In this document: positions 30,518 through 41,406 of the stretch, one piece after another
Layout: each line of letters starts with the position of its first letter
Position numbering within the stretch: position 1 is the stretch's first letter
Assembly (NCBI RefSeq): GCF_900129315.1
Contig: NZ_FQUS01000001.1
Location: 310,001 to 374,000, forward strand
Source: Fodinibius roseus
GTDB lineage: Bacteria; Bacteroidota; Rhodothermia; Balneolales; Balneolaceae
DNA length: 64,000 nt
Reading direction: 5' to 3'
Translations under genes and position numbers: made by a program
Notes under the pieces: generated by a model
What the model was told of the DNA's origin: nothing
The model's input: the letters and a program-made list of their open reading frames with translations, nothing else
The model's database searches: none

Positions 30518-30935
30518 TTCCGGGAACAGCAGCAGATATGAAACGCCGGAATTCCCGTTGATGGATCAGATCAGCGGGATTCCGGTTTTTTTTATTTTTT
30601 AACCGGATACAAAAGTTGTTTTTCCGACTTTTCTGTTAGCCCGGATGTATCCTCACTCTTAAGGAGCTTGGAGTTATTCCATATTCTTAGTGATGAGAAA
30701 AAGGGATACCCCGTATTTTTCACAAAGGGTATGATATATTGTAGTATCCTCATGATACAGATAAATGTAGTTCGATTTTTGAGACCGAAATTATAACAGC
30801 GCGTAACACACTGCGAACGTTGCCCGTCAGCGGCGTTGAAGATAACCATATCGTATCGGGCGCAGGGAGATATGTCGGCCTGCCATTTTTCCTTTGCCCT
30901 GCTTCAAGCACAAGTTTCCTGGTGAAAAATCCGGG
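30518..30935. other. Convergent intergenic region, 418 bases
   Basis: It holds the aconitase terminator (30546-30594). After that I see no gene with good composition. A minus-strand frame at 30592-30849 runs through the terminator stem and is not credible. Confidence 0.55.
30546..30594 (+). terminator. Rho-independent terminator after aconitase
   Basis: The stem is CCGGAATTCCCGTTGAT with ATCAGCGGGATTCCGG (one G-U pair and one mismatch), followed by TTTTTTTTATTTTTT. It lies 29 bases after the stop codon. Confidence 0.88.
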
Positions 30936-32483
30936 TCAGCCGCCATAGGTATCCCACAATTCTCCCAGAAAGAAGGTCCCGAAATTAGCAAGCAAATTTA
31001 TTTCTTCAGCCGCCCCCGAAGCATCGATGGCATGCATGCTTTTAATAAGTTTTATCAGTTCTTTTACCTCGAGTCTGAGTATACCGGCCCCAACGATATC
31101 GCCTGTGTCATCAGATCCTTCGAATAACCTTACCTTTAAGGTGGTGGTATCATTCCAGAGATCAAAACCGGGATCATTTTTCACCTCCTTTTTTCCGGCT
31201 AAATAGTACTCCCGGTCACTATAGCTGAACGATAATTCATAGATCATCCATTTGACTTCGGTATCTTTATCATCTTCCACAAACAGGTTAAATACTCCTG
31301 TTTTAGCCGGCAGGTAGTTGTCGAAGTCCTCAAAAACAAGGTGCCCGTTCATCGTTCCGCCATGGTCCGGGTTCTCCATAAATCCTTCCAGATCGCGAAT
31401 ATAAATAGAAGCATGCAGGGACATACGGCTGCCTTTCTCCCTGCCTGCAACGGCTCCCTGCTTCGGATCCGTTTCACCCAAGGCAAACCAGCCTTCCATC
31501 TTTTCCCGGAAAGCTATACCGGGCGCCGGGTCTTTCATTTGAGTAGCAGTAGTTGTAAAAGAAACGCCTTCTTCGTCGCGCTTGTCCAGATATTGTATCG
31601 CATCAGCATATCCCATACTCACAAGGGTGGAAGCATCTATACGATTAAAAAAGAAATCAGGATCCAGGGGAAGGGGATACTCCGGTTTTATAACATGAAG
31701 AGTTACCGGCCGATCTTGACCATAGGGCGAGTCGCCCCGGCGGATTCGTTCGTTCAGTTCTCTGAGACGATCGAACTCTTCAAACAGGGCCCCGTTGGCG
31801 CTCATTTCAATCATGTGTACATACTGGTTGAACAGGCCGTCCCTGTATTGCCCGTGATTCCCTATGCACCACACCAGCCAAATTTCTTCGGCTCCCCGCT
31901 TCACAGCTTCGGTCAGATTCGCGTCCTTAATCCAGACCGCATCGATGTACTTCTTATTCTGATAATGAACAGCAGGCATGAATATCGGAAGTGAAATGCC
32001 TGCTACCAGCAGATCCAGCGCTATGTTCTGGTGAGGTATGGATTCGTTGATCTTGCCCGTATAGTTACAGATGTTAAAGGTCCCCTGCATACCCCTGGCT
32101 TGCCTGATCTTCTCAATATCAATACCAAGGTGCGGAAACACTTCATTGACAATCCCTTCGGCGCTGCCAAGTGCCTTAGTTTTATGCAAGCGCAGGTATT
32201 CGTCAAATGGCAGCATGGAAACAAATTTTTTGACATCGAGGGTACGCCACCGGTCACACATTTCCGCAGGAGAGCGTCCCGACAGCAGCATCGCCAGGTT
32301 CATCGTGCCACCCGAAGTGCCGTCGGCGTGGTGGAAGCAAAGATTGTGTTCAACCAGGGCCCGTATGACCCCGGCCTGGTAGGCCACGCGCATGCCCCCG
32401 CCCGCGAGCACAAGCGATCGCCTGGGACCCGTAGAGTCAGTCGTTGGCGCTCCGTAAACAAGTTCTTTTGGTTTGTTCATCAT
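30936..32483 (-). CDS. Patatin-like phospholipase
   Basis: The 515-aa protein (ATG 32483; a TTG four codons upstream is possible) has a patatin domain. The oxyanion loop is LVLAGGGMRVAYQAGVIRAL, the nucleophile motif G-x-S-x-G is GTSGG (Ser57) and the catalytic Asp is in KKYIDAVWIKD (Asp181), with Ala instead of the usual Gly after it. The last 180 residues form a second region, with SMSLHASIYIRDLEGFMENP-like beta strands, that I do not recognise. Patatins release fatty acids from phospholipids and other acyl esters. It is the last gene of the eight-gene minus-strand unit, 25 bases after the preceding membrane protein. Confidence 0.9.
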   Translation of the reverse strand: MMNKPKELVYGAPTTDSTGPRRSLVLAGGGMRVAYQAGVIRALVEHNLCFHHADGTSGGTMNLAMLLSGRSPAEMCDRWRTLDVKKFVSMLPFDEYLRLHKTKALGSAEGIVNEVFPHLGIDIEKIRQARGMQGTFNICNYTGKINESIPHQNIALDLLVAGISLPIFMPAVHYQNKKYIDAVWIKDANLTEAVKRGAEEIWLVWCIGNHGQYRDGLFNQYVHMIEMSANGALFEEFDRLRELNERIRRGDSPYGQDRPVTLHVIKPEYPLPLDPDFFFNRIDASTLVSMGYADAIQYLDKRDEEGVSFTTTATQMKDPAPGIAFREKMEGWFALGETDPKQGAVAGREKGSRMSLHASIYIRDLEGFMENPDHGGTMNGHLVFEDFDNYLPAKTGVFNLFVEDDKDTEVKWMIYELSFSYSDREYYLAGKKEVKNDPGFDLWNDTTTLKVRLFEGSDDTGDIVGAGILRLEVKELIKLIKSMHAIDASGAAEEINLLANFGTFFLGELWDTYGG

Positions 32484-32507
32484 TAATTTTGTCAAAAAGC
32501 AGTATTA

Positions 32508-32891
32508 TTATCGTTCCTTTATAGAATACCAGTAAATCATAATCAGGAATCCCGAGACAAGATCAAAGCCGGCAACCCCCAGGGCCAGCCACGAAAAAAT
32601 GTCCCGGGAGACTCCGAGCCCAACGGCTGCGGCCGCCCCGAATTTTTGAAACCCGCACCAGAACACGGCCACAGGCTGGTGCCGTGTTGCCCCGAGGGCG
32701 TGGTACAGGAGTCCCCCAAACAAGACCATAAACAGGCCGACAATGCCAAAGAAATGCGTAGATGCCGGCGTTGCGGCCCCATCAATAATATACAGGACCA
32801 ATGCCGGGTTAACGGCTTGAACCAACCCGCTGATTATGGTAATGGCCGCTATAATTTTCAGGACCGTTTTTACATGATTTTTATAGGTCAT
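32508..32891 (-). CDS. Small four-helix membrane protein
   Basis: The 127-aa protein has about four hydrophobic helices: VLKIIAAITIISGLVQAV, FFGIVGLFMVLFGGLLYHA, AVFWCGFQKFGAAAAVGLG and WLALGVAGFDLVSGFLIMIYWY. A TRHQP turn follows helix 2. I do not recognise a family. Its spacing of 9 bases from the preceding gene and 24 from the patatin places it firmly in the operon, so it may anchor or assist the lipid-active enzymes. Confidence 0.72.
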   Translation of the reverse strand: MTYKNHVKTVLKIIAAITIISGLVQAVNPALVLYIIDGAATPASTHFFGIVGLFMVLFGGLLYHALGATRHQPVAVFWCGFQKFGAAAAVGLGVSRDIFSWLALGVAGFDLVSGFLIMIYWYSIKER

Positions 32892-32900
32892 ATTTTTTTC

Positions 32901-33317
32901 TTATTGCAGTGATCGTTCCAGCCGGTTTCGCGAATACAGGAAAATAATGATAACGCCGACTCCTTCATAAATCATAAAAAAGTAAAAAATCCAGCTTGGT
33001 GAACCGTCAGCAAATAATGAAACAGTTCGTGCCAGGACTCCTGCAAGCATAATCGTCAGAAAGAGAGTATTAAATTTTTTAACCGTAAAAATTTCGGTTC
33101 GAAAAACAATGGCAAACAGACCAAATCCCAGTTCCATGGCCCGGAGAAACCGGTACTGGCTAAGAACATTGGCCCGCGTTTCATCAGCAAGCGTACTGGT
33201 ATCGAGACTAAGCAAAAGCTGATGGTCTACATCAGCCCCGAGAAAAGCTCCCCAGAATCCAGCCAGAACCACCAGTCCGATATAGGTATAAAAGAAGAAA
33301 TAATTAAGGGTTTTCAT
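32901..33317 (-). CDS. Four-helix membrane protein, DUF4345-like
   Basis: The 138-aa protein has four predicted helices. The motif YRFLRAMELGFGLFAIVF in the second helix and GVLARTVSLFADGSPSWIF in the third resemble DUF4345-type proteins. This is pattern memory, not proof. It lies between two other small membrane proteins with 9 and 10 base gaps, as part of the eight-gene unit. Function is unknown. Confidence 0.7.
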   Translation of the reverse strand: MKTLNYFFFYTYIGLVVLAGFWGAFLGADVDHQLLLSLDTSTLADETRANVLSQYRFLRAMELGFGLFAIVFRTEIFTVKKFNTLFLTIMLAGVLARTVSLFADGSPSWIFYFFMIYEGVGVIIIFLYSRNRLERSLQ

Positions 33318-33327
33318 CCCGGTGTAA

Positions 33328-33816
33328 CTATTTATAGGTTAGACTTCTGTGGGTTGGGAAATAGCTTAAGAAATAGAGCAGCATCAACACCCATTCTCCC
33401 GTCCAAAAAAACATGCGGACAAGATGCAGGTTTTGCCAGGTACTGAGGATCTGTTGTAGCTCCGCCCGGTTGGTGATTCCCGCAGCCAGCTGTTCGTTGT
33501 AGGGAAAGATAAAAACCGACGTCAGAATGGTAGCCGCAACGACAGCTGATAGAATACCTATCGGATACCATTTTCGATACGATTTCCATTCTTCGATAAT
33601 GATGATTATGGCCGACAGAAACATCAGTATCGTCATGACGGTAAAAAAGTCAGTCGCCCGGTTTATCGGCGGTACAAACTGTTCGTAATAATTTTCCGGA
33701 GTCAGGGAATCCGCCGAGGGAAGAGAGAAAAAGACCAGTGACCATCCGGTGCCGAAGTACATGGAGACGCAGGCAAACAAAAAGGATTTGTTGATTTTCA
33801 GCAGTATGTTTTTCAT
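33328..33816 (-). CDS. Four-helix membrane protein, DUF1772-like
   Basis: The 162-aa protein starts at ATG 33816 (a TTG four codons upstream is possible). It has four helices with GTGWSLVFFSLPS after the first, EEWKSYRKWYPI after the second, TSVFIFPYNEQL after the third and WQNLHLVRMFFWTGEWVLM in the last. The conserved pattern of Phe/Pro/Asn and a C-terminal His-Arg-Trp resembles DUF1772 and anthrone-oxygenase-like proteins. The resemblance is loose. It follows the ADC-like gene closely in the operon. Confidence 0.7.
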   Translation of the reverse strand: MKNILLKINKSFLFACVSMYFGTGWSLVFFSLPSADSLTPENYYEQFVPPINRATDFFTVMTILMFLSAIIIIIEEWKSYRKWYPIGILSAVVAATILTSVFIFPYNEQLAAGITNRAELQQILSTWQNLHLVRMFFWTGEWVLMLLYFLSYFPTHRSLTYK

Positions 33817-33837
33817 TGGTGTAGTCAATCGTTTTAA

Positions 33838-34725
33838 TTAAATTTTGAAATGCTCATACTCCGTAATCGAGGGTGGAGCCAGCCATTCTTTATCTAATCC
33901 CAGGTCAACTACGCTTTCCATCCCTTCCGGCATGCGGGACGGGGGGGCGTCATATGTCAGAAACCAGCTTTCCAAGTGGTCGTCGAGGATACCGTTCGCC
34001 CTGGGGATATACATTGTGAGAAAGGGGGCGCTGTCGATTTCGAGGTCCCGTAGCGGGGCCGTTTTAGGATGGTCGCCGATGTAAAGCCGGGCATTGGCAC
34101 TCCCAAATAAATTTAATCCCGCTTTCCCGTTGAAGTAGATGTAGGAAGCCATCAGCATATTGCGGAATTTGCAATAGTTCGTGGCGGCTATGTTAAACGG
34201 GATCCAGGCTTTAGAGGGACGGTCGATCTCAATCCGCATGGCGAACTGACCGTCTTTTTCATACTGGCTGCTGACGATCTTGTCACTGATTTTATAATCC
34301 AAGCGGGCCTGGTGCTTGGGCATTCCCCATATACCTTTTCCGCCTTTGACTGAAATTTCAGAGCTCACAGGCAGATCGATGACATACTGCCCGGTTCCGT
34401 ACCAGCTCATAAACAGTCCAGGCAGCAGGGGCGGTGCGGGTTTGGGTCCGCGGGTACAGGCAATGGCAATGCTGAATTCGATATATTTACCAATGCTTGT
34501 TTCCAGGTAATTGATCACCGTAATTAGCAGAATTCCTTTGCCATTCCATAGCCGGAAGGGATGCAGTTCATTGCCCGGCAAAAAGCCTTTTGCTTTATCT
34601 GCATTTATTTGGAAGCCGGCAAACAGGGCAGGGGAGTCCACACAGTTTATAGGCATGACGTAAGGGATGCCGTCAACTGATGCATGACGATCCCGGTATC
34701 GTTTAATTCGTTTTGGTACTCCCAT
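33838..34725 (-). CDS. Acetoacetate decarboxylase-like protein
   Basis: The 295-aa protein matches the ADC fold. The conserved Schiff-base lysine segment is KGIWGMPKHQAR (Lys137), and the usual NYxE-type stretch is ITVINYLETSIGKYIEF. ADC-like proteins decarboxylate beta-keto acids or do aldol/retro-aldol and cyclase-like chemistry. No acetone-forming pathway genes (CoA transferase, thiolase) are near. Instead it sits among GMC oxidase, hydrolase and patatin genes, so a beta-keto product of the flavoprotein is a possible substrate. That link is inference. Confidence 0.85.
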   Translation of the reverse strand: MGVPKRIKRYRDRHASVDGIPYVMPINCVDSPALFAGFQINADKAKGFLPGNELHPFRLWNGKGILLITVINYLETSIGKYIEFSIAIACTRGPKPAPPLLPGLFMSWYGTGQYVIDLPVSSEISVKGGKGIWGMPKHQARLDYKISDKIVSSQYEKDGQFAMRIEIDRPSKAWIPFNIAATNYCKFRNMLMASYIYFNGKAGLNLFGSANARLYIGDHPKTAPLRDLEIDSAPFLTMYIPRANGILDDHLESWFLTYDAPPSRMPEGMESVVDLGLDKEWLAPPSITEYEHFKI

Positions 34726-34755
34726 GGTAATAATTATCAGCTGATTAATAATTTG

Positions 34756-35793
34756 TTAGGTCGTTTCCAGTTCTTCTGCGATTAGCGGAAATACATCAGA
34801 AGCGGCATTTTTTCCCATAAAGATATCGAGATGGCTGTAGCCTGGAATACAGTGCAGGGCATGACGTCCCGGTTCCCGGCGATTAAAATAATTATAGGTT
34901 CTGAGCTGACTTTCGGGCAGAAAGCAAAGGTTTTCTTCGCCGGTAAAAAATGCGAACCTTGCTTTTGTTTGAGGCTCAGTAGCTATATAATCCCCCGGCA
35001 GTTCGTTTTCCCCTTTCAGGGAGACCAGGTTCCCTTTCTCAATACACTTTTTAATATGATTGAAAAAAAGCACCGGGACTTCGGCAAACTCCTCCCTTAA
35101 CCACTCATGCGTAGCCTCATTCAGGTTTTCATGCCTCCAGAGGGCCGGAAACCCACTTCCATAGGTAAAACTGACTTCTTTGCATACCCCGTTGTCGCAT
35201 TCATTGTGGGTAAATTCAACGAGACTGTGGATAATTCTGGGAAAAAACCAGGGCGCTTCTTTGCCCCACTGGGGATTAAGATAATCAGTGAAGAGCGCTA
35301 CCACCGGAAGGGCAAACCTTGACTTGTAGACGGACCAATCGGGTACGACCGGGTGCAGAGAGACAGCATTGCTTATGATGGTTGTCACCTGGGGTACCAG
35401 TCCGGCCACAGCCGACATCATAAAGCTCGTGGATCCCTGGCAGTGAATAATCGCTTTTATCTCCTCGTATCCCGTCTTCTCAACAACTTTGGATACGGCT
35501 TCGGGGTGATCATATTTGGCCGCCAGGTCCAGGTTCCATTCGTTGGGTGGAAATTCGATGCTTGCCCGCCAGTTTTCCAACCAAACGTCGTAGCCTTCAT
35601 GTACGAGGTAATCCACGATGTCGGTTTCAACGGGAGCCCTGAAAATATTGGCTCTCACCCCCGCTCCGTGAACGAGTAACACCGGACCTTTAGGCGGGTG
35701 CTCTTCCGCTTTCACATTGATAAGGTTACAGGACATGCCGTCGCCTGCCTTAAAAGGGATGATCTGCTCACTATATGTTTTTTTAGTGCTCAC
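34756..35793 (-). CDS. Alpha/beta hydrolase with probable Cys nucleophile
   Basis: The 345-aa protein has the oxyanion turn VLLVHGAGVRANIF (residues 38-51) and a nucleophile elbow in KAIIHCQGSTSF, where the residue aligned with the usual Ser is Cys118 (x-H-C-Q-G). The C-terminal catalytic His is probably in IPGYSHLDIFMG. Cys nucleophiles occur in dienelactone hydrolases and PHA synthases. Related hydrolases are often fused to cholesterol-oxidase-like GMC proteins, as far as I recall. The GTG start at 35793 overlaps the GMC stop by 11 bases, so the two are translationally coupled and probably act together. Confidence 0.88.
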   Translation of the reverse strand: MSTKKTYSEQIIPFKAGDGMSCNLINVKAEEHPPKGPVLLVHGAGVRANIFRAPVETDIVDYLVHEGYDVWLENWRASIEFPPNEWNLDLAAKYDHPEAVSKVVEKTGYEEIKAIIHCQGSTSFMMSAVAGLVPQVTTIISNAVSLHPVVPDWSVYKSRFALPVVALFTDYLNPQWGKEAPWFFPRIIHSLVEFTHNECDNGVCKEVSFTYGSGFPALWRHENLNEATHEWLREEFAEVPVLFFNHIKKCIEKGNLVSLKGENELPGDYIATEPQTKARFAFFTGEENLCFLPESQLRTYNYFNRREPGRHALHCIPGYSHLDIFMGKNAASDVFPLIAEELETT

Positions 35794-37525
35794 GATGATC
35801 AGAGATATTGTTCGTACTGTAGTCGATGGTCCACCCGTAATCGTCAGCCATATACTTGCAGTTTCGCTCAGCCAGGGCAGAGATAGTCAGCAACGGATTT
35901 ACGCCCAGGGTCCGGGGAATAACAGAGCCATCGCTTACATATAATCCTTTATAAGCCTGCGTCCCATTTGTATTATCGAAGACCTGCCCCTTATGGTTAA
36001 CCACCCCCTCTGTGGCATCTTCTCCCATAATCACTCCCCCAAGAGGATGCACCGTAGTAAGTCGATGTTTGAACAGTTTATTCCAGGTCGGATTTTTTAT
36101 ATAGGTGCCCCCAAGCCGCTGCGTAACCTTTTCAAGGTTCCGGCTCACTTTTTGGAAGATAGACTGCTTGCCCACATCATCCCAGGTTATTCGTATGCGG
36201 TCGTTTTTTAAAAAACACTCGCCCTTTCCATCGTCGTGGGTCATGACCAGGTAGGTCATGGTGTTCCTGGTAGCGCCCCGGTATGCGCCACCCAGAAGAG
36301 ATCTCAATTTACGCCATAGTTCCCGAAAGAAATCAGTAAATCCCCGATCGGTATCCCTTCCGATAAATTTGGAGGAAAAGGCGAGCATCCAGGGTACAAA
36401 AGCGGACAGGGCCCCCGGGATCACGCCTTCTTCTATCACCATCCCTTCACTTTTTTTACTATGGGTGTATTTGTCTTCTCGCAGGTCGATGATACCCGTA
36501 ATGCAGGGACCGACGGGACGATCTTTATCCGGTTCTTTGTGTCCCATTCCAATAGCATTGGCGTCAACGTCATTATTGTAGCCGAACCCGAGAAAGTCGC
36601 CATTACCGGTAAAACGCTGTCCCAGCATATCCGACATCTCCAGTCCGTTTTCTTTCGATCGCAGCAGTATCTCAGTGGTTCCGAGGGTGCCGGCTGCGAG
36701 GATGACGATATCAGCCGTGACAAAGTTTGTGGATTCCCCGAATTTTTTACCTCCCGCATTCATGATCTTATACCGTACCACCCACTGCTCCCGGTGGCGT
36801 TCGATCCGGTCTACGGCCGCTTCCGTAAATATTTCCGCCCCGTGGTTCCTGGCATCCGGAAGGTAGTTCATGAGCGTGGTATTCTTGGCCGCGTAGTTGC
36901 AGCCGGTTACACAATCACCGCATCCGTTGCAGGCGTTTTGAAACACGCCGGCATGATTTTCTCCCTGCTCAAAGTTTACGTTTATGGGGGGACGGTAAAA
37001 AGCGCCTTTTTCCCAGTTTCCAGAGGCCGATTCCATTGCTTTTAATTTTGCAGGGGTCCGCCAGTCCCCCGGATAGGGTGTTGGCTTTAGCATATTTTTT
37101 GCCAGCCGAAAGCACTCATCCAGGGTCTTCCTGTCCGCCTGTAAAGCGGAGGGCCACTCCTCAGAGGCCATCACCCAGTCTTTCGGAGGCAAAGAGACGT
37201 TCGCATTGACCAGCGAAGTCCCTCCCAGTCCGCATCCCTGGAATACATTGATATCTTCATTAAAACGAAAGTCGTACAGTCCGGTTTCGGGGCCAACGTG
37301 TTTTCCCTCCAGGTCCATCTGCATCTCTTTTGTAGCTTCCGCCTCCCTGTCCGGATATTCCCCCGGATGCAGCTCTTTCCCCTTCTCCAGCAGACAAACC
37401 GACTGTCCCGCTCGGGCCATCCGGGAGGCACTGATGCTTCCTCCGTAACCGGACCCCACAACCACCACGCGGTAATGTTCCTTCATTTGTTCAACAGGGA
37501 GTGATAATCGTTCCATAACAGTCAT
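35783..37525 (-). CDS. GMC oxidoreductase, cholesterol-oxidase-like, with Cys cluster motif
   Basis: The 580-aa flavoprotein has the FAD dinucleotide loop VVVGSGYGGS (residues 22-30), the GMC segment NVFQGCGLGGTSLVNANVSL and the C-terminal pair His493 (VHPLGGVIMGED) and Asn543 (LGVNPLLTISALAE). Between them is an insert, NACNGCGDCVTGCNYAAK, with four cysteines (199, 202, 205, 209) spaced C-x2-C-x2-C-x3-C. This spacing resembles an iron-sulfur site and is seen in some cholesterol-oxidase-like GMC proteins. It likely oxidises an alcohol on a hydrophobic substrate. The true substrate and electron acceptor are unknown. Confidence 0.92.
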   Translation of the reverse strand: MTVMERLSLPVEQMKEHYRVVVVGSGYGGSISASRMARAGQSVCLLEKGKELHPGEYPDREAEATKEMQMDLEGKHVGPETGLYDFRFNEDINVFQGCGLGGTSLVNANVSLPPKDWVMASEEWPSALQADRKTLDECFRLAKNMLKPTPYPGDWRTPAKLKAMESASGNWEKGAFYRPPINVNFEQGENHAGVFQNACNGCGDCVTGCNYAAKNTTLMNYLPDARNHGAEIFTEAAVDRIERHREQWVVRYKIMNAGGKKFGESTNFVTADIVILAAGTLGTTEILLRSKENGLEMSDMLGQRFTGNGDFLGFGYNNDVDANAIGMGHKEPDKDRPVGPCITGIIDLREDKYTHSKKSEGMVIEEGVIPGALSAFVPWMLAFSSKFIGRDTDRGFTDFFRELWRKLRSLLGGAYRGATRNTMTYLVMTHDDGKGECFLKNDRIRITWDDVGKQSIFQKVSRNLEKVTQRLGGTYIKNPTWNKLFKHRLTTVHPLGGVIMGEDATEGVVNHKGQVFDNTNGTQAYKGLYVSDGSVIPRTLGVNPLLTISALAERNCKYMADDYGWTIDYSTNNISDHREH

Positions 37526-37530
37526 ATTAA

Positions 37531-39306
37531 TTATTTGCGTCGAAGCACGATCGGATCTTCTATCAGATCATATTGCAGGTCACCGTCCGGGGAATACCAG
37601 GGATGTTCACCCTCGACCCCGGCATTATATTGCCAGTGGCGGCATACAGTGGGAATTTTAATGGGAAATATGGTCAATTCTTTCGGGGAGATCTTGATGC
37701 GTATGAAGTTTTTATAATCTTCTCCGCGAAAAGACGAGAAAGCCTCCGTATCATGTGTTTTCAGAAGTAAAATAGCGACCAACAAGTATATGCCCATGGC
37801 GTATCCGCTAAAAAGCCATCCCAGGGCTGCAGCTATTATACCGCCGGCTGCAATACCTGTCATGCTGACCGGGATGGTCCCGAACAGGGCAATCAGCAAT
37901 GCAGCGGTAATCCAAATAGAGCAAAGGATCAAAAGAATTTGGAACAACCCATGCAGGAAACCTAAAATCCAACAGGTTATATTATTCTTTCTGTTTTTAT
38001 CAGCAAAGACCACAATGCCGGCAAAAACAATCAGTAGCAGAAAAGTTATTTCAGGATTATAGAACAATAAATTTTTATAGAGCCGGAGTGCTTCGTCTGC
38101 CTGGCTGATTGATAATGCTGAAAGAGCATGGAAAAACGATGCAGGATCGCCCCCCGCCGTATTGCTGACCGCCGTTAACCAGGCAAAAAGAAGATATATT
38201 ACGGAAAAGAAACCCCCGAATGTTCTATTAATGAACGGGAACTTGAGGTTGTTCCATGCGAGTTTCCGTGAGGTAGACTCATCAGGAAAAGACGTATTCC
38301 TTGTAAAAGTACCCGTTTCCAAATGAAGCCGGTCTGGAACCTGATGAGTCGGATGCAAGAAAGCACCGCCGCCGCCGGCTGTTATCTTCCAATCGGGATC
38401 AGGGTCATTCTCTTTTTTAAAACTGGCGTAATGGTGCAGGTCGCCTGCCAGTAACAGCCGAAAATTCAGCTGCTTCTTGTCTTCTTTTTTGGAATATCGC
38501 TCCTGGAAGAACTTGAGATTCCTGTAGGCTTTGTCGTCCTGCTGGTATTCCTGATACGTCCAGGCTGGCTCGGCTGTGCACAGAATAATATCATCTCCGG
38601 GTGAGGCCTGTTCATAGATTTTATCAAAATAATCGATTTGTGTTTTATCGATATCCGCACATAGCTGAATATCGATACCCCAGAGCCACCAGTCATGAGG
38701 GAGCCTGGTGGCAAAATAGCTCCGTGTCTGTTTGGTGTGCCATCCGCCAATCCATCGCTGTTGACAGAACATTTTGATAAAACTGGAGAGCCCGTCATAC
38801 CAGTCGTGATTCCCGGGAATGGCATACAGGGAGGGAGGCGATTCCTCTACATAGGGCAGTGAACAGCGATATGGAGCAATGAGCCTGTTTTGATATTCCT
38901 TCCAGGTGGCAGTGGGATACACTTCGTCTCCTCCCATCACCAGCATATTCGCCCGGGGCAAAAGGTGGTTTTCACCCGCGCTGTCACTGACCATTAATTT
39001 CTTCCGACCGATCAGGTAGGCAACAGAATAGGAGGAATTCCAGCCGGAGCCTATATCTGATACGTAATCAATCCATATTGATGATCGATCTGAGAAATCT
39101 TCGACCGGTTGTATCTCATTGGTAAGCTGCAGAGCCGCCTGCATCTCCCTCTTGTCGGCATAGTCGCCAAATACTGCTGAAATAACGGTACGTAAACCGG
39201 TTTGAGCTAATTGGGAGGGGCTATACCAGTCAACCATCCGTTTTTTTTCGAATCCCAATAATTTATTACTATCCCGGTCGGGACTCCTGGGTTTGTCAGT
39301 CGCCAT
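37531..39306 (-). CDS. Metallophosphoesterase with C-terminal membrane domain
   Basis: The 591-aa protein has a calcineurin-like phosphoesterase domain (about 75-320): MLVMGGDEVYPTA (GD at 126-127), AIPGNHDWYDGLSSF (GNHD 165-168) and LLAGDLHHYAS near the domain end. The C-terminal third has five or six hydrophobic helices, beginning FFSVIYLLFAWLTAV and ending YAMGIYLLVAILLL, so it is anchored in the membrane. No signal peptide is seen, which suggests a cytoplasmic catalytic domain. It is the first gene of the eight-gene unit and is 5 bases from the GMC oxidase. A lipid-phosphate or nucleotide-lipid substrate is possible. Confidence 0.88.
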   Translation of the reverse strand: MATDKPRSPDRDSNKLLGFEKKRMVDWYSPSQLAQTGLRTVISAVFGDYADKREMQAALQLTNEIQPVEDFSDRSSIWIDYVSDIGSGWNSSYSVAYLIGRKKLMVSDSAGENHLLPRANMLVMGGDEVYPTATWKEYQNRLIAPYRCSLPYVEESPPSLYAIPGNHDWYDGLSSFIKMFCQQRWIGGWHTKQTRSYFATRLPHDWWLWGIDIQLCADIDKTQIDYFDKIYEQASPGDDIILCTAEPAWTYQEYQQDDKAYRNLKFFQERYSKKEDKKQLNFRLLLAGDLHHYASFKKENDPDPDWKITAGGGGAFLHPTHQVPDRLHLETGTFTRNTSFPDESTSRKLAWNNLKFPFINRTFGGFFSVIYLLFAWLTAVSNTAGGDPASFFHALSALSISQADEALRLYKNLLFYNPEITFLLLIVFAGIVVFADKNRKNNITCWILGFLHGLFQILLILCSIWITAALLIALFGTIPVSMTGIAAGGIIAAALGWLFSGYAMGIYLLVAILLLKTHDTEAFSSFRGEDYKNFIRIKISPKELTIFPIKIPTVCRHWQYNAGVEGEHPWYSPDGDLQYDLIEDPIVLRRK

Positions 39307-39698
39307 ATTCTGGAATATAAGGTGAAATATTCTTTATCATCCCCTTTTGGTATCGCATCCGGTTCAAACAGGCTAATTTTTTTAGATCACGAACAGAAGT
39401 TGAAAGAGGTACCCAAAAAGCAACCTATTCCTGTATTACCCTGTAAATTATAGGTTAAGTTTTTTTCCCTTAGACACGGGTGCTGCTTTTTTAAAACAAT
39501 AAACGAAAAAAATGTATTTAACAAGGTACAGTTTTAAAATTATATCCTTGTAGGACAGACGGCACCGGGATCCCTTGATTTTCTTTTAGTAATAGGGGAA
39601 TTATGCTCAGACAGCGGAGGGACATTGATATAATAAGTACGGAGCAGTGGACTGTAGAGTGGAAATCTGTTCCGGGGAGATGCTTTAAACTTGATCTA
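39307..39698. other. Intergenic region upstream of the eight-gene unit, 392 bases
   Basis: It should contain the promoter for the metallophosphoesterase-to-patatin operon. No promoter match is convincing, and no gene or terminator is clear. A run of pyrimidine-rich sequence (39460-39500) is the only composition change. Confidence 0.45.
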
Positions 39699-40076
39699 TC
39701 AAAGTTCCGGGCGCTTTTTATGGGGATTCAAATAGACGGGTAAATTTTCATTATAATTGAATCTCAACTCTTTTTTCCATCCTTTTTCCAGTATAGGTTC
39801 TCCGATACCCTCGATGGTAATGACTGCACGGTTTTTTTGCTTTGACGGGGAAATATGCAACACTTTGGCTGTACCCTTTCCATTTATACATTCTTCTCCA
39901 CAATTGAAGGGGCCATCATATTCTATGGTGACTGCTTTGTCTTTTTTTGCGTGCCGGGGTACCAGATGACTACTTACTACGCATACGCCAATCCAGTTGT
40001 TAACTCCAGGCTGAATATGGGCTTGTCCCCGGCCGGTTTCACCGTTCACTTTTACTATCGGTAGTGTGATATCCAT
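39699..40076 (-). CDS. Hypothetical cytoplasmic protein
   Basis: The 125-aa protein has no signal peptide or membrane helix. It contains GRGQAHIQPGVNNWIGVCVVSS, a Cys pair in YDGPFNCGEECINGKG and a basic end PHKKRPEL. I do not recognise it. The normal composition, clean ATG and a terminator-like hairpin between it and csbD support a real gene. The cysteines could bind a metal, but no known motif is matched. Confidence 0.55.
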   Translation of the reverse strand: MDITLPIVKVNGETGRGQAHIQPGVNNWIGVCVVSSHLVPRHAKKDKAVTIEYDGPFNCGEECINGKGTAKVLHISPSKQKNRAVITIEGIGEPILEKGWKKELRFNYNENLPVYLNPHKKRPEL

Positions 40077-40105
40077 AACATCTATATGTTAAGTATAAAA
40101 AATAT

Positions 40106-40142
40106 AAAGCCCCAGCCTGTTAAAGGTAGCGGCTGGGGCTTT
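40106..40142. terminator. Hairpin between csbD and the hypothetical gene
   Basis: AAAGCCCCAGCC and GGCTGGGGCTTT form a perfect 12-base stem around a 13-base loop. The minus-strand side reads into AAAGCCCC-type stem ends with T's, so it likely terminates csbD. Confidence 0.75.
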
Positions 40143-40214
40143 ATGCGCTTTAGCTTACTCGGGAATGACAGCAAGTTAGGCCCTCTTCGCAGGTATAAAT
40201 TATATGCTTTTATT

Positions 40215-40400
40215 TCAGGCATTACGAACGATTTCCCGTGCTTTTTCTTTGGACGTCCCCAGCCGCTGCTGAATACGGCCGACAAGCTCTTCTTCCTTAC
40301 CCTCTGCATAGATTAGGTCGTCATCAGTCAGTTCTGCATATTTTTGTTTTAATTTCCCTTTTTTTTCGTTCCAGTTGCCTTTGATGTTTAATTTATTCAT
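40215..40400 (-). CDS. CsbD family small stress protein
   Basis: The 61-aa protein matches CsbD: MNKLNIKGNWNEKKGKLKQK, DDLIYAEGKEEELVGRIQQR and GTSKEKAREIV. CsbD-like proteins are small, hydrophilic and highly expressed under general stress. They are thought to be partly disordered. It sits with a PRC-barrel-like protein and a 56-aa protein, all likely stress related. A strong hairpin follows downstream. Confidence 0.95.
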   Translation of the reverse strand: MNKLNIKGNWNEKKGKLKQKYAELTDDDLIYAEGKEEELVGRIQQRLGTSKEKAREIVRNA

Positions 40401-40435
40401 GTGACTGTATGTTAATGATTGGGTGGTTGGATTGT

Positions 40436-40606
40436 TTATGTGCGGCGAGTGCCAGATTGTTTCGATTGTTGGATACGCCTTATTTTACGTCGAATACTTT
40501 CCATTAATTCTTCTATGGTCAGATCCTCGGGATTGTCGATAGAGTAGGGTTGGTCTTTTTTGTTCTTATTTCCGGGGATTTCTCCCTCGAATTTTATTGA
40601 GCTCAT
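40436..40606 (-). CDS. 56-aa small basic protein
   Basis: This short frame from ATG 40606 to TAA 40436 begins MSSIKFEGEIPGNKNKKDQP and continues with NPEDLTIEELMESIRRKIRRI, a charged helix. The start lies only four bases after the stop of the PRC-barrel-like gene, so the two are probably co-translated. It has no motif I know. The amphipathic, Arg-rich C-terminal helix could bind nucleic acid or a partner protein. Confidence 0.5.
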   Translation of the reverse strand: MSSIKFEGEIPGNKNKKDQPYSIDNPEDLTIEELMESIRRKIRRIQQSKQSGTRRT

Positions 40607-40610
40607 AAAA

Positions 40611-41177
40611 TCAGTTGTTTTTTCTGCTTATTGGTTTTTGAATTCTGTGCTTCTGACCTGTAGAATCACAGTAATTGTAAAGTTCATAGATGGAGGGTCC
40701 GAATGGGAAGCTCGGCGGGGGACATTTATCAGCGGAAACGCCTTTGGCCAGCTTCAAATCATTTTTGTCAACCTTCAGTACCACTTTTCCCTCTTCGGAA
40801 AGTTCCAAAAGGTCGGACGATGCCGGTACAGCGAAATATCGATTTCCTCCTCCGAAGAAATTTGTACAGTGCAAGATGATATATTGGAGGTTATTTTTAT
40901 CATCATACCTTATTTCTTTTATGCGACCCAGGAACTCCCCTTTATGGTTACGTATCTCTGCACTCATAGCATGGGACGTCAGCGAGTTCCGTAATTTCAT
41001 TATTATTTCTTCATCAATCACATCTATTACCATTCGTTGACCGCTGTTTTGTTTCTTCTGCAGTGGTCTTTGCAGGTTTGTGGCCGGGCTGGTAGGGTCT
41101 GGCATATCTACATCCAATTGCTGGTGAAATAGGATACCACCTCGTTTCAGGTGGTCTTGTTTTTTTCTCATACCCAT
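40611..41177 (-). CDS. PRC-barrel-like domain protein
   Basis: Several in-frame starts exist; ATG at 41177 (188 aa) is chosen, with the frame open to 41315. Residues from about 78 on form a PRC-barrel-like strand set: SAEIRNHKGEFLGRIKEIRYD, LQYIILHCTNFFGGGNRYFAVP and GKVVLKVDKNDLKLAKGV. PRC-barrel proteins occur in RNA metabolism (RimM) and in stress and photosynthesis contexts. The N-terminal 70 residues are low in complexity. It is the first gene of a probable unit with the 56-aa protein and csbD. Confidence 0.65.
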   Translation of the reverse strand: MGMRKKQDHLKRGGILFHQQLDVDMPDPTSPATNLQRPLQKKQNSGQRMVIDVIDEEIIMKLRNSLTSHAMSAEIRNHKGEFLGRIKEIRYDDKNNLQYIILHCTNFFGGGNRYFAVPASSDLLELSEEGKVVLKVDKNDLKLAKGVSADKCPPPSFPFGPSIYELYNYCDSTGQKHRIQKPISRKNN

Positions 41178-41406
41178 TTTATTAAAGATCATCGGACTAA
41201 AACATAGAACGAACTGTGATATTTGCGTAGACAATTTTGCTACATCACTCTGTAAAAAATGTACTTTGAACTCGGCGTAAAGGAGAAAGGATATGTCAGG
41301 ATATATTTTTAACAACGATAGCCTTTTATGCCATCGGCGATTTAGCCATATTCTTTTTAAAATTGGAGAAATGCGAGATAGAGCGGAAGGCCGGCAGCAG
41401 AATCAC

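What the first reader, a model, noticed from the sequence alone, without database searches (positions are those of the whole stretch)
30936..39306. Eight-gene lipid-type oxidation and cleavage operon (metallophosphoesterase, GMC oxidase, Cys-hydrolase, ADC-like, three membrane proteins, patatin)
Eight same-strand genes with gaps of 5-30 bases, or overlaps, combine a cholesterol-oxidase-like flavoprotein, an alpha/beta hydrolase, a beta-keto acid decarboxylase-like protein, a patatin and a membrane metallophosphoesterase, with three different four-helix membrane proteins. In many bacteria GMC and hydrolase parts are fused into one protein, as I recall; here they are split and coupled (11-base overlap). 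The enzyme set would fit oxidation of a hydroxyl to a ketone, hydrolysis, decarboxylation and acyl release on a hydrophobic substrate. The substrate is unknown, and I know of no described pathway with exactly this set.
Basis: partly seen in the sequence, partly recalled or inferred. Interest (0 to 1): 0.68.

Follow-up and report, generated by a model that had tools for sequence, protein, structure and literature searches.

The report
Conserved eight-gene lipid-type enzyme module
Eight neighbouring bacterial genes, five for enzymes and three for small membrane proteins, form a unit that turns up together in very distantly related bacteria and probably oxidises and cuts a fatty molecule nobody has yet identified.

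Summary
In detail: eight minus-strand genes at 30936-39306, gaps of 5 to 30 bases and one 11-base overlap. They are a real unit. Of 57 fetched loci from eight phylum labels with at least 8 kb on each side of the ADC-like gene (the search bait), 57 have the Cys-hydrolase, 56 a GMC flavoprotein, 54 the patatin, 47/41/22 the three membrane proteins, 39 a window-type phosphoesterase. No ninth partner recurs across phyla. Catalytic residues are nearly invariant. The unit is patchy: none of 11 other genomes of the genus has its ADC-like gene, and a sister genome shows the empty site. New parts: a beta-barrel domain without Pfam family, shared by GMC and patatin proteins but missing from the window's GMC; a cysteine trio spaced like the 3Fe-4S ligands of a GMC glucose dehydrogenase; and fused or smaller relatives. 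Best reading: a horizontally spread, membrane-associated module that oxidises, cleaves and decarboxylates a hydrophobic, lipid-like substrate. Substrate, order and product are inferred. Ten searches of an open-licence library found no description.

The parts
37531..39306 (-). Membrane-anchored calcineurin-like metallophosphoesterase (MPE), 591 aa; soluble catalytic part first, hydrophobic segments near residues 362-515
   Evidence: Pfam Metallophos 23.1 bits, cut-off 21.5; hydropathy; D80, D84, D127, N166, H167, D168, D289, H291 each 50 of 50
38803..38814 (-). GNHD motif of the MPE (residues 165-168), a metal-site motif of the family (recalled)
   Evidence: G165, N166, H167, D168 each 50 of 50
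35783..37525 (-). GMC flavoprotein, 580 aa; lacks the C-terminal barrel domain that 49 of 69 aligned GMC ORFs carry
   Evidence: GMC_oxred_N 60.6 and GMC_oxred_C 53.6 bits; barrel count
36899..36931 (-). Cys cluster C199-x2-C202-x2-C205-x3-C209 of the GMC protein, putative Fe-S site
   Evidence: C199 69 of 69, C202 65 of 68, C205 and C209 68 of 68; spacing of C199/C205/C209 equals Cys212/218/222 of the 3Fe-4S GMC glucose dehydrogenase (PMC6719666, passages)
34756..35793 (-). Alpha/beta hydrolase with Cys nucleophile (ABH), 345 aa; start overlaps the GMC stop by 11 bases
   Evidence: Abhydrolase_1 27.6 bits, cut-off 25.8; a four-sequence profile matches gastric and lysosomal acid lipases at E 8.6e-10 to 9.8e-8
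35431..35445 (-). Nucleophile elbow H117-C118-Q119-G120-S121 of ABH
   Evidence: each 72 of 72
33838..34725 (-). Acetoacetate-decarboxylase-like protein (ADC), 295 aa
   Evidence: Pfam ADC 45.2 bits, cut-off 29.8
34315..34317 (-). Lys137 of ADC, taken as the Schiff-base lysine of the family (family role recalled); Glu83 is its invariant partner
   Evidence: K137 and E83 78 of 78; both invariant against three annotated ADC-family proteins of 17-24% identity
33328..33828 (-). Membrane protein TM1, 166 aa, anthrone-oxygenase (PF08592) family
   Evidence: 29.8 bits, cut-off 27.3
32901..33317 (-). Membrane protein TM2, 138 aa, DUF4345
   Evidence: 48.6 bits, cut-off 26.5; R56 and R59 30 of 31, E62, R97, E118 31 of 31
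32508..32891 (-). Membrane protein TM3, 127 aa, no Pfam family over cut-off; predicted four-helix bundle
   Evidence: AlphaFold mean pLDDT 92.3; W78, Q82, K83, D110 53 of 53
30936..32495 (-). Patatin-like hydrolase (PAT), 519 aa, with C-terminal barrel domain
   Evidence: Patatin 73.2 bits, cut-off 27.7; S61 and D185 70 of 70
30936..31538 (-). C-terminal barrel domain of PAT (200 aa), homologous to the C-terminus of most other loci's GMC proteins and to the middle of fused GMC-hydrolases
   Evidence: 26-61% identity; AlphaFold pLDDT 93.0; no Pfam family shared among 61 members, only stray matches with best E 0.017
30518..41406 (.). Stretch absent from sister genome G001, where the aconitase gene and the response-regulator gene are about 360 bp apart

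Best explanation
The eight genes form one horizontally spread, membrane-associated enzyme module acting on a hydrophobic, lipid-like substrate. Proposed working: the patatin frees an acyl (probably hydroxy-acyl) chain or ester from a membrane lipid. The GMC flavoprotein dehydrogenates a secondary hydroxyl to a ketone, and its Cys cluster passes the electrons on, perhaps to a quinone through the small membrane proteins. The beta-barrel domain on the GMC or the patatin holds the greasy substrate. The Cys hydrolase takes the acyl group as a thioester and hydrolyses or transfers it. The ADC-like enzyme forms a Schiff base through Lys137 on the new beta-keto acid and removes CO2, which would give a methyl ketone or similar. 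The phosphoesterase removes a phosphate from the lipid head group or precursor. Shown: the unit, its conservation, the conserved active-site residues, the domain architecture, the empty site. Inferred: substrate class, order of steps, product, electron path, direction of the transfer (gain here or loss in the sister).
For: Co-location in 57 full-flank loci: ABH 57, GMC 56, barrel domain 57, PAT 54, TM3 47, TM1 41, MPE 39, TM2 22; 20 have all eight; 55 have all hits on one strand. All 26 of the 81 loci with all eight genes have one and the same order, ABH-ADC-TM1-TM3-TM2-PAT-MPE-GMC (25 Bacteroidota, 1 of another phylum). The eight families are the eight largest ORF clusters. Strong ADC and ABH matches fall in the same 4 of 296 genomes. 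Pairwise distances correlate between all 28 gene pairs, r 0.43 to 0.86, 0 of 300 permutations as high. Near-invariant catalytic residues in ADC, ABH, GMC, PAT and MPE. GMC, barrel and ABH occur together without the rest: fused in Bernardetia, Leptospira and Rhizobium, as three neighbours in Pseudonocardia, and fused beside an MPE gene with a 4-base overlap in one same-family genome. Lipase-like ABH, patatin and a lipocalin/avidin-like barrel point to a hydrophobic substrate. Fe-S-type Cys spacing. In Roseithermus the two end genes of what I infer to be its six-gene version, AWN76_007025 (GMC, fold change 1.88) and AWN76_007050 (patatin, 2.70), rise together on xylan (PMC7409140 Table 6, passages).
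Against: No substrate or product is known. All four GMC proteins found in this genome have the C-x5-C-x3-C spacing, so it is a common trait, not special to the module. The distance correlations partly reflect shared species history. The window's MPE has Ser where 48 of 50 have Asp (position 87) and its GMC lacks the barrel, so this copy may be altered. TM2 and the window-type MPE are missing in many loci (MPE in 0 of 6 cyanobacteria). A strong promoter-like match lies inside the MPE gene. The barrel's fold matches are weak (Foldseek best E 0.012).
Confidence: 0.45

Rival explanations
1. A secondary-metabolite tailoring or degradation cluster for a polycyclic or isoprenoid compound (steroid-, hopanoid-, anthrone- or polyketide-like), with the GMC protein acting on a ring hydroxyl and the anthrone-oxygenase-like TM1 and ADC-like enzyme acting on the ring product or side chain.
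For: GMC best solved-structure matches are cholesterol oxidases, E 6.7e-22 to 1.4e-20; TM1 is over the Anthrone_oxy cut-off; a distant ABH relative sits beside a type I polyketide synthase and thioester reductase on a Rhodococcus plasmid; the barrel resembles calycin-type proteins, among them pericyclases, at low Z.
Against: No further gene family recurs across phyla in the clusters as a conserved partner, so no common scaffold-building gene, although only 20 of 171 listed flanking ORFs were scanned with Pfam; cholesterol oxidase model score 173 against a cut-off of 850; the Rhodococcus hydrolase is only 26% identical and no other module protein matches that stretch.
Confidence: 0.25
2. A conflict or defence module: patatin, phosphoesterase and small membrane proteins as effectors that damage or remodel membranes on infection or attack.
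For: Patchy distribution; a CHAT-domain ORF (PF12770, 78.5 and 73.2 bits) overlaps the end of the phosphoesterase-position ORF in Shewanella and Rheinheimera, and the Shewanella one also matches PADLOC's SAVED_CHAT model (41.6 bits); TM1 has a sub-threshold SLATT_1 match (15.3 bits, cut-off 26.3).
Against: None of the eight window proteins has a meaningful match in PADLOC (only the flavin motif of GMC, E 0.0038); several metabolic enzymes with conserved active sites is not a usual defence layout (general knowledge); no sensor or NTPase recurs as a partner across phyla (one loose histidine-kinase cluster of 8 loci, which I took for chance); CHAT was seen in 2 loci, though other flanks were scanned only in part.
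Confidence: 0.1
3. Lipid storage or polyester turnover: the Cys hydrolase as a PHA-synthase-like acyltransferase and the rest handling 3-hydroxyacyl units.
For: Cys nucleophile with CQG context; PHA synthase models are the best NCBIfam matches of ABH.
Against: Scores are trivial (15.3 bits against a cut-off of 365.3); no further partner gene recurs across phyla in the clusters.
Confidence: 0.08
4. Unrelated neighbours that happen to lie in one direction.
For: Some loci lack one or more members; gene order differs between groups.
Against: Recurrence of the same eight families within 10 kb across phyla, one order in all 26 complete loci and correlated divergence.
Confidence: 0.01

Closest known systems
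Fused GMC oxidoreductase - alpha/beta hydrolase proteins (annotated 'GMC oxidoreductase' or 'alpha/beta fold hydrolase')
   Same: In three plasmid-borne examples: GMC part 47-53% identical, same barrel domain in the middle, Cys nucleophile (HCxGA), His region aligned; a fourth, in a same-family genome, lies next to the same phosphoesterase
   Different: One chain instead of two; no match to ADC, PAT's catalytic half, TM1, TM2 or TM3 in the four stretches (9-13 kb, tblastn at E 1e-4); hydrolase part only 29-35% identical
Burkholderia cepacia FAD glucose dehydrogenase catalytic subunit (3Fe-4S GMC dehydrogenase, PMC6719666, passages read)
   Same: GMC fold, His/Asn catalytic pair, Cys spacing x5 and x3 of the cluster ligands
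   Different: Hands electrons to a multihaem c subunit and has a hitchhiker subunit; no ninth partner gene recurs in the module; substrate differs
Class I cholesterol oxidases (PDB 1b4v and others)
   Same: Closest solved structures by sequence, E about 1e-21
   Different: Far below the NCBIfam cholesterol oxidase cut-off; that they lack the Cys cluster is from memory
Acetoacetate decarboxylase family (PF06314)
   Same: Over the Pfam cut-off; Lys and Glu invariant
   Different: Own clade with an extended C-terminus against the three compared; no solved relative found by sequence; decarboxylation untested, and relatives of this superfamily are known to do other Schiff-base chemistry (recalled)

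Membership tests
GMC oxidoreductase superfamily | GMC_oxred_N and GMC_oxred_C domains, dinucleotide-binding glycines, catalytic His and Asn | tested here: met
   60.6 and 53.6 bits over cut-offs; G24, G26, G28 69 of 69 and H493/N543 67 of 67
Cholesterol oxidase (NF058674) | Score above curated cut-off of 850 bits | tested here: not met
   173.4 bits
Fe-S-bearing GMC dehydrogenase (as BcGDH) | Three Cys ligands with spacing C-x5-C-x3-C | tested here: met
   C199, C205, C209 against Cys212, 218, 222; compared by spacing, not by structure
Fe-S-bearing GMC dehydrogenase (as BcGDH) | Bound cluster and electron transfer to a partner instead of O2 | not testable with these tools
   needs purified protein, EPR and acceptor assays
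Acetoacetate decarboxylase family | PF06314 match plus Schiff-base Lys and partner Glu | tested here: met
   45.2 bits, cut-off 29.8; K137 and E83 78 of 78. Which residue is catalytic in the reference enzyme is recalled
Acetoacetate decarboxylase family | Decarboxylation of a beta-keto acid | not testable with these tools
   no assay
Patatin-like phospholipase | PF01734, glycine-rich oxyanion motif, GxSxG Ser, catalytic Asp | tested here: met
   73.2 bits; G32-34, R36, S61, D185 70 of 70
PHA synthase | Score above TIGR01836 cut-off 365.3 | tested here: not met
   15.3 bits
Anthrone oxygenase family (PF08592) | Score above 27.3 bits | tested here: met
   TM1 29.8 bits; activity untested
Known anti-phage defence systems (PADLOC 2.0.0) | Match of a component model | tested here: inconclusive
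   no meaningful match for the eight proteins; the library holds only described systems

The most novel reading that the evidence does not exclude
An undescribed, phylum-crossing pathway that converts membrane-lipid hydroxy-acyl chains into ketone lipids or methyl ketones (or a comparable decarboxylated hydrophobic signal), built on a new three-part enzyme core: an Fe-S GMC dehydrogenase, a beta-barrel substrate carrier and a Cys-nucleophile acyl hydrolase, found both split (here) and fused.
Probability: 0.25. Interest if true: 0.82.

Novelty: new variant of a known kind. Interest (0 to 1): 0.58.

Why it matters
A set of eight genes that stays together across several bacterial phyla with conserved active sites almost certainly does something specific, yet my searches found no description of it. 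It gives several uncharacterised families (DUF4345, the bacterial anthrone-oxygenase-like proteins, TM3, the barrel domain and the Cys hydrolases fused to GMC proteins) one common functional context. It makes a direct test possible: under ten kilobases, one gene cluster, one metabolite comparison.

Tried and rejected
Solved-structure sequence searches for ADC, PAT, TM1, TM3 and the barrel gave nothing useful: ADC matched pneumovirus nucleoproteins and one peptidase weakly, by chance, PAT matched ExoU and PlpD weakly (best E 0.017), TM1 and TM3 nothing, the barrel one antibody fragment at E 0.52. Two ADC-family proteins used as bridges found no solved relative either. TM1, TM2 and TM3 are not alike by profile comparison, though 4 of 36 TM3 members weakly match DUF4345 (best E 0.0018). 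Foldseek gave no match at E 0.001 or below for the barrel or TM3. The second look gave barrel Z 9.9 (3.3 A over 116) to a chain of Lumbricus erythrocruorin, with designed barrels, OmpA and avidin at Z 7 to 8.4 and GID4 up to 7.4. For TM3 it gave Z 13.0 (2.8 A over 116) to a designed bundle with EBP 9.4 and a VKOR-like protein 9.2 among many unrelated four-helix proteins, so no function is read from it.

This found unrelated genes, a divergent calcineurin-like phosphoesterase where the window type is missing, DUF6765 in two cyanobacteria, a PhoD-like phosphatase in one acidobacterial bin, and CHAT in two gammaproteobacteria. Four of the 20 had no Pfam family at E 0.001 or 0.01 (L071:14242-15834, L051:7257-8726, L065:5414-6544, L093:5034-5780). 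Clusters 20 and 33 are antisense ORFs, and clusters 10 and 12 (short-chain dehydrogenase and histidine kinase, by eye, 13 and 8 loci) were taken for common families met by chance; all four were set aside.

Papers: ten searches of the open-licence PubMed Central library found no account of this gene set. I saw listings of these, and read passages of three papers only: PMC7409140, PMC6719666 and PMC12419801 (the last looked at for overlap; its main text has no 'GMC', 'DUF4345' or 'anthrone'). Subscription journals are largely not covered.

Limits of counts: of 219 places that encode an ADC relative only the best 80, ranked by similarity to the query, were returned, and one plasmid locus was added. 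Of these 81, 57 have 8 kb or more on each side of ADC; the 24 shorter loci are tallied apart. tblastn hits under 45 bits were not counted. Residue counts use ORFs that my simple ORF caller kept (ADC 78, ABH 72, PAT 72, GMC 69, MPE 50, gaps left out), so some loci are missing. For the fold predictions the window row plus 60 of 81 barrel rows and 35 of 51 TM3 rows were used. The scan used two short conserved patterns of ADC, so more distant versions are undercounted.

Full report
What is there. Eight ORFs on the minus strand between 30936 and 39306 code, in transcription order, for a membrane metallophosphoesterase (MPE), a GMC flavoprotein, an alpha/beta hydrolase with Cys nucleophile (ABH), an acetoacetate-decarboxylase-like protein (ADC), three small membrane proteins (TM1, TM2, TM3) and a patatin (PAT). 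The gaps are 5, -11, 30, 9, 10, 9 and 12 bases. No second copy of ADC or ABH was found in this genome at E 0.001; PAT has two weak relatives at 22 and 34% identity.

It is a unit, and a travelling one. In a sample of 296 genomes of the wider phylum, strong ADC matches occur in four including the window's own, and strong ABH matches in the same four; one further genome (G028) has a 34% ABH match inside a fused protein, and one (G302) a marginal ADC match at E 3.6e-4. None of the 11 other genomes of the genus has ADC. In sister genome G001 the genes that flank the window's unit, aconitase (93% identical) and a response regulator (76%), lie about 360 bp apart with nothing of the unit between them. 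This reads as an insertion here or a clean loss there. Five other genus members fetched keep the aconitase but show no close copy of that regulator beside it, so the site is variable. GC content of the module is 0.486 against 0.465 for the rest of the window, which does not single it out.

Conservation across phyla. A scan with an ADC alignment gave 219 places in one-genome-per-species data; the best 80 were fetched, and one Arthrobacter plasmid locus was added. By my labels these are 50 Bacteroidota, 10 Pseudomonadota, 6 Cyanobacteriota, 5 Acidobacteriota, 4 Actinomycetota, 3 Nitrospirota, 2 Myxococcota and 1 Rhodothermota. Among the 57 with at least 8 kb on each side of the ADC gene: ABH 57, barrel domain 57, GMC 56, PAT 54, TM3 47, TM1 41, window-type MPE 39, TM2 22; all eight in 20; all hits on one strand in 55. 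In the 24 shorter loci: ABH 23, PAT 19, TM1 17, TM3 17, GMC 14, barrel 14, MPE 11, TM2 10; all eight in 6. All 26 loci with all eight genes have the same order, ABH-ADC-TM1-TM3-TM2-PAT-MPE-GMC, 25 of them Bacteroidota and one from another phylum (by it is L091, Paracidovorax). The window and G303, of the same family, instead have MPE-GMC-ABH-ADC-TM1-TM2-TM3-PAT. Loci with fewer genes differ more. All-against-all clustering of ORFs in 83 loci returns exactly these eight families as the eight largest clusters, and the next cluster is limited to one bacterial family. Pairwise protein distances correlate for all 28 pairs (r 0.43-0.86, 0 of 300 permutations as high; part of this is shared species history). 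In the ADC tree (quick search, SH-aLRT) the window row lies in a branch with Bacteroidota (support 99), while other phyla mix in the rest of the tree with mostly weak support.

Active sites. Across the aligned ORFs: ADC E83, K137 and H138 78 of 78; ABH H117, C118, Q119, G120, N288, H321 and D323 72 of 72; GMC H493 and N543 67 of 67, Cys cluster C199 69 of 69, C202 65 of 68, C205 and C209 68 of 68; PAT G32-G34, R36, S61, D185 70 of 70; MPE D84, D127, N166, H167, D168, H291 50 of 50. E83 and K137 are also invariant against three annotated ADC-family proteins of 17-24% identity. That this Lys and Glu are the catalytic pair of acetoacetate decarboxylase is recalled, since no solved relative could be aligned. 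The window's own MPE has Ser at position 87 where 48 of 50 have Asp.

First, a roughly 200-residue domain at the end of PAT is homologous to the end of most other loci's GMC proteins (49 of 69 GMC ORFs carry it) and to the middle of fused GMC-hydrolases. It has no Pfam family and is predicted with high confidence (pLDDT 93.0) as a beta-barrel-like sheet with a long C-terminal helix. Its structural neighbours are weak and are barrels of the lipocalin, avidin and GID4 kind. The window's GMC lacks this domain (580 aa against about 780) and ends inside the start of the hydrolase gene, but the patatin keeps its copy. All 57 full-flank loci hold at least one copy. Second, the GMC protein carries C-x2-C-x2-C-x3-C. 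The spacing of three of these equals that of the 3Fe-4S ligands Cys212, Cys218 and Cys222 of the B. cepacia GMC glucose dehydrogenase, where the cluster takes electrons from FAD (PMC6719666, passages read). The other three GMC proteins found in this genome have the same C-x5-C-x3-C spacing, so this is a class trait; it argues for a dehydrogenase that passes electrons on. Third, GMC, barrel and ABH exist as a set of their own: fused in Bernardetia, Leptospira and Rhizobium, and as three neighbouring genes in Pseudonocardia, with no match to ADC, PAT's catalytic half, TM1-3 or MPE in the 13-19 kb fetched. In one same-family genome (G028) a fused GMC-barrel-ABH protein of 1138 aa starts 4 bases before the end of an MPE gene, with no ADC or PAT found on that 9.4-kb contig. 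The GMC-barrel-ABH trio thus looks like the core to which phosphoesterase, ADC, PAT and the membrane proteins are added; that order of events is inference.

Phosphoesterase is more general than the tblastn count says. Where the window-type MPE was not found, Pfam shows a divergent calcineurin-like protein beside the module in L087 (38.5 bits), L069 (23.5) and, just under the cut-off, L070 (21.0 against 21.5), and a PhoD-like phosphatase upstream in L044. These were picked by position, not sampled. Conversely, genome G308 has a window-type MPE without any other module gene within the 20 kb fetched.

Outside data. In Roseithermus sacchariphilus RA, Table 6 of PMC7409140 (passages read) lists AWN76_007025 (GMC, fold change 1.88) and AWN76_007050 (patatin, 2.70) on xylan, while three other GMC genes have 0.43 to 0.60. 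With locus tags in steps of five, these two tags span six genes, which is the number, with these two at the ends, seen in another strain of the species (GMC-ABH-ADC-TM1-TM3-PAT, L011/L045). That the tags are this locus is my inference.

How it probably works. The enzyme set and the lipase-like ABH point to a hydrophobic substrate handled at the inner membrane; by hydropathy and eye PAT, GMC, ABH and ADC show no signal-peptide-like start, and the MPE's catalytic part precedes its membrane segments. My reading is acyl release by PAT, dehydrogenation by GMC with electrons leaving through its cluster, acyl transfer or hydrolysis by ABH, decarboxylation by ADC, and phosphate removal by MPE, with the barrel domain carrying the substrate. 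The order and the product are inference. The main rival keeps the module but changes the substrate to a ring system; a weaker rival is a conflict system, prompted by a CHAT gene in Shewanella and Rheinheimera.

Verdict. The chemical reading is plausible, partly corrected and untested. As far as my searches reach it is an undescribed conserved metabolic module built from known enzyme kinds, hence 'new variant of a known kind'.

Noticed in passing
window 30518-41406; L114 (sister genome G001): Empty site: aconitase and response-regulator genes are about 360 bp apart in the sister genome; the window stretch also holds two further ORFs (39699-40076, no Pfam family; 40611-41315, not scanned).
   Followed up: partly
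window 35783-35793: The window's GMC gene lacks its C-terminal barrel domain and ends inside the hydrolase start; the same-family locus L010 keeps the domain.
   Followed up: yes
window MPE residue 87 (gene 37531-39306): Ser in place of a near-invariant Asp (48 of 50) close to the invariant D84; this copy may be altered.
   Followed up: no
window 37835-37863, minus strand: Best promoter-like match of the region (11 of 12) lies inside the phosphoesterase gene, some 310 bases before the GMC start.
   Followed up: no
L085:15810-17828 and L087:15795-17813: A CHAT-domain ORF overlaps the end of the phosphoesterase-position ORF next to the module in Shewanella and Rheinheimera.
   Followed up: partly
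L054:7757-8857 and L077:7816-8880: A DUF6765 gene sits between GMC and hydrolase in two cyanobacteria.
   Followed up: no
L134:3656-8760: Two-gene relative: phosphoesterase plus fused GMC-barrel-hydrolase with a 4-base overlap, in a same-family genome, without ADC on that contig.
   Followed up: partly
L094:6381-10014 (Pseudonocardia plasmid): GMC, a stand-alone barrel protein and the Cys hydrolase as three neighbouring genes, the hydrolase on the other strand.
   Followed up: partly
L097 (Rhodococcus plasmid pSID) 3659-8485: A distant Cys hydrolase relative lies between a thioester reductase and a crotonyl-CoA carboxylase/reductase next to a type I polyketide synthase.
   Followed up: no
L001, L002, L003 (own genome): The three other GMC proteins found in this genome also carry the C-x5-C-x3-C spacing; Fe-S GMC dehydrogenases may be common in this group.
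   Followed up: partly
L135:9940-13031 (G308): A window-type phosphoesterase gene lies 2 bases after an erythromycin-esterase-family gene, without the rest of the module.
   Followed up: no
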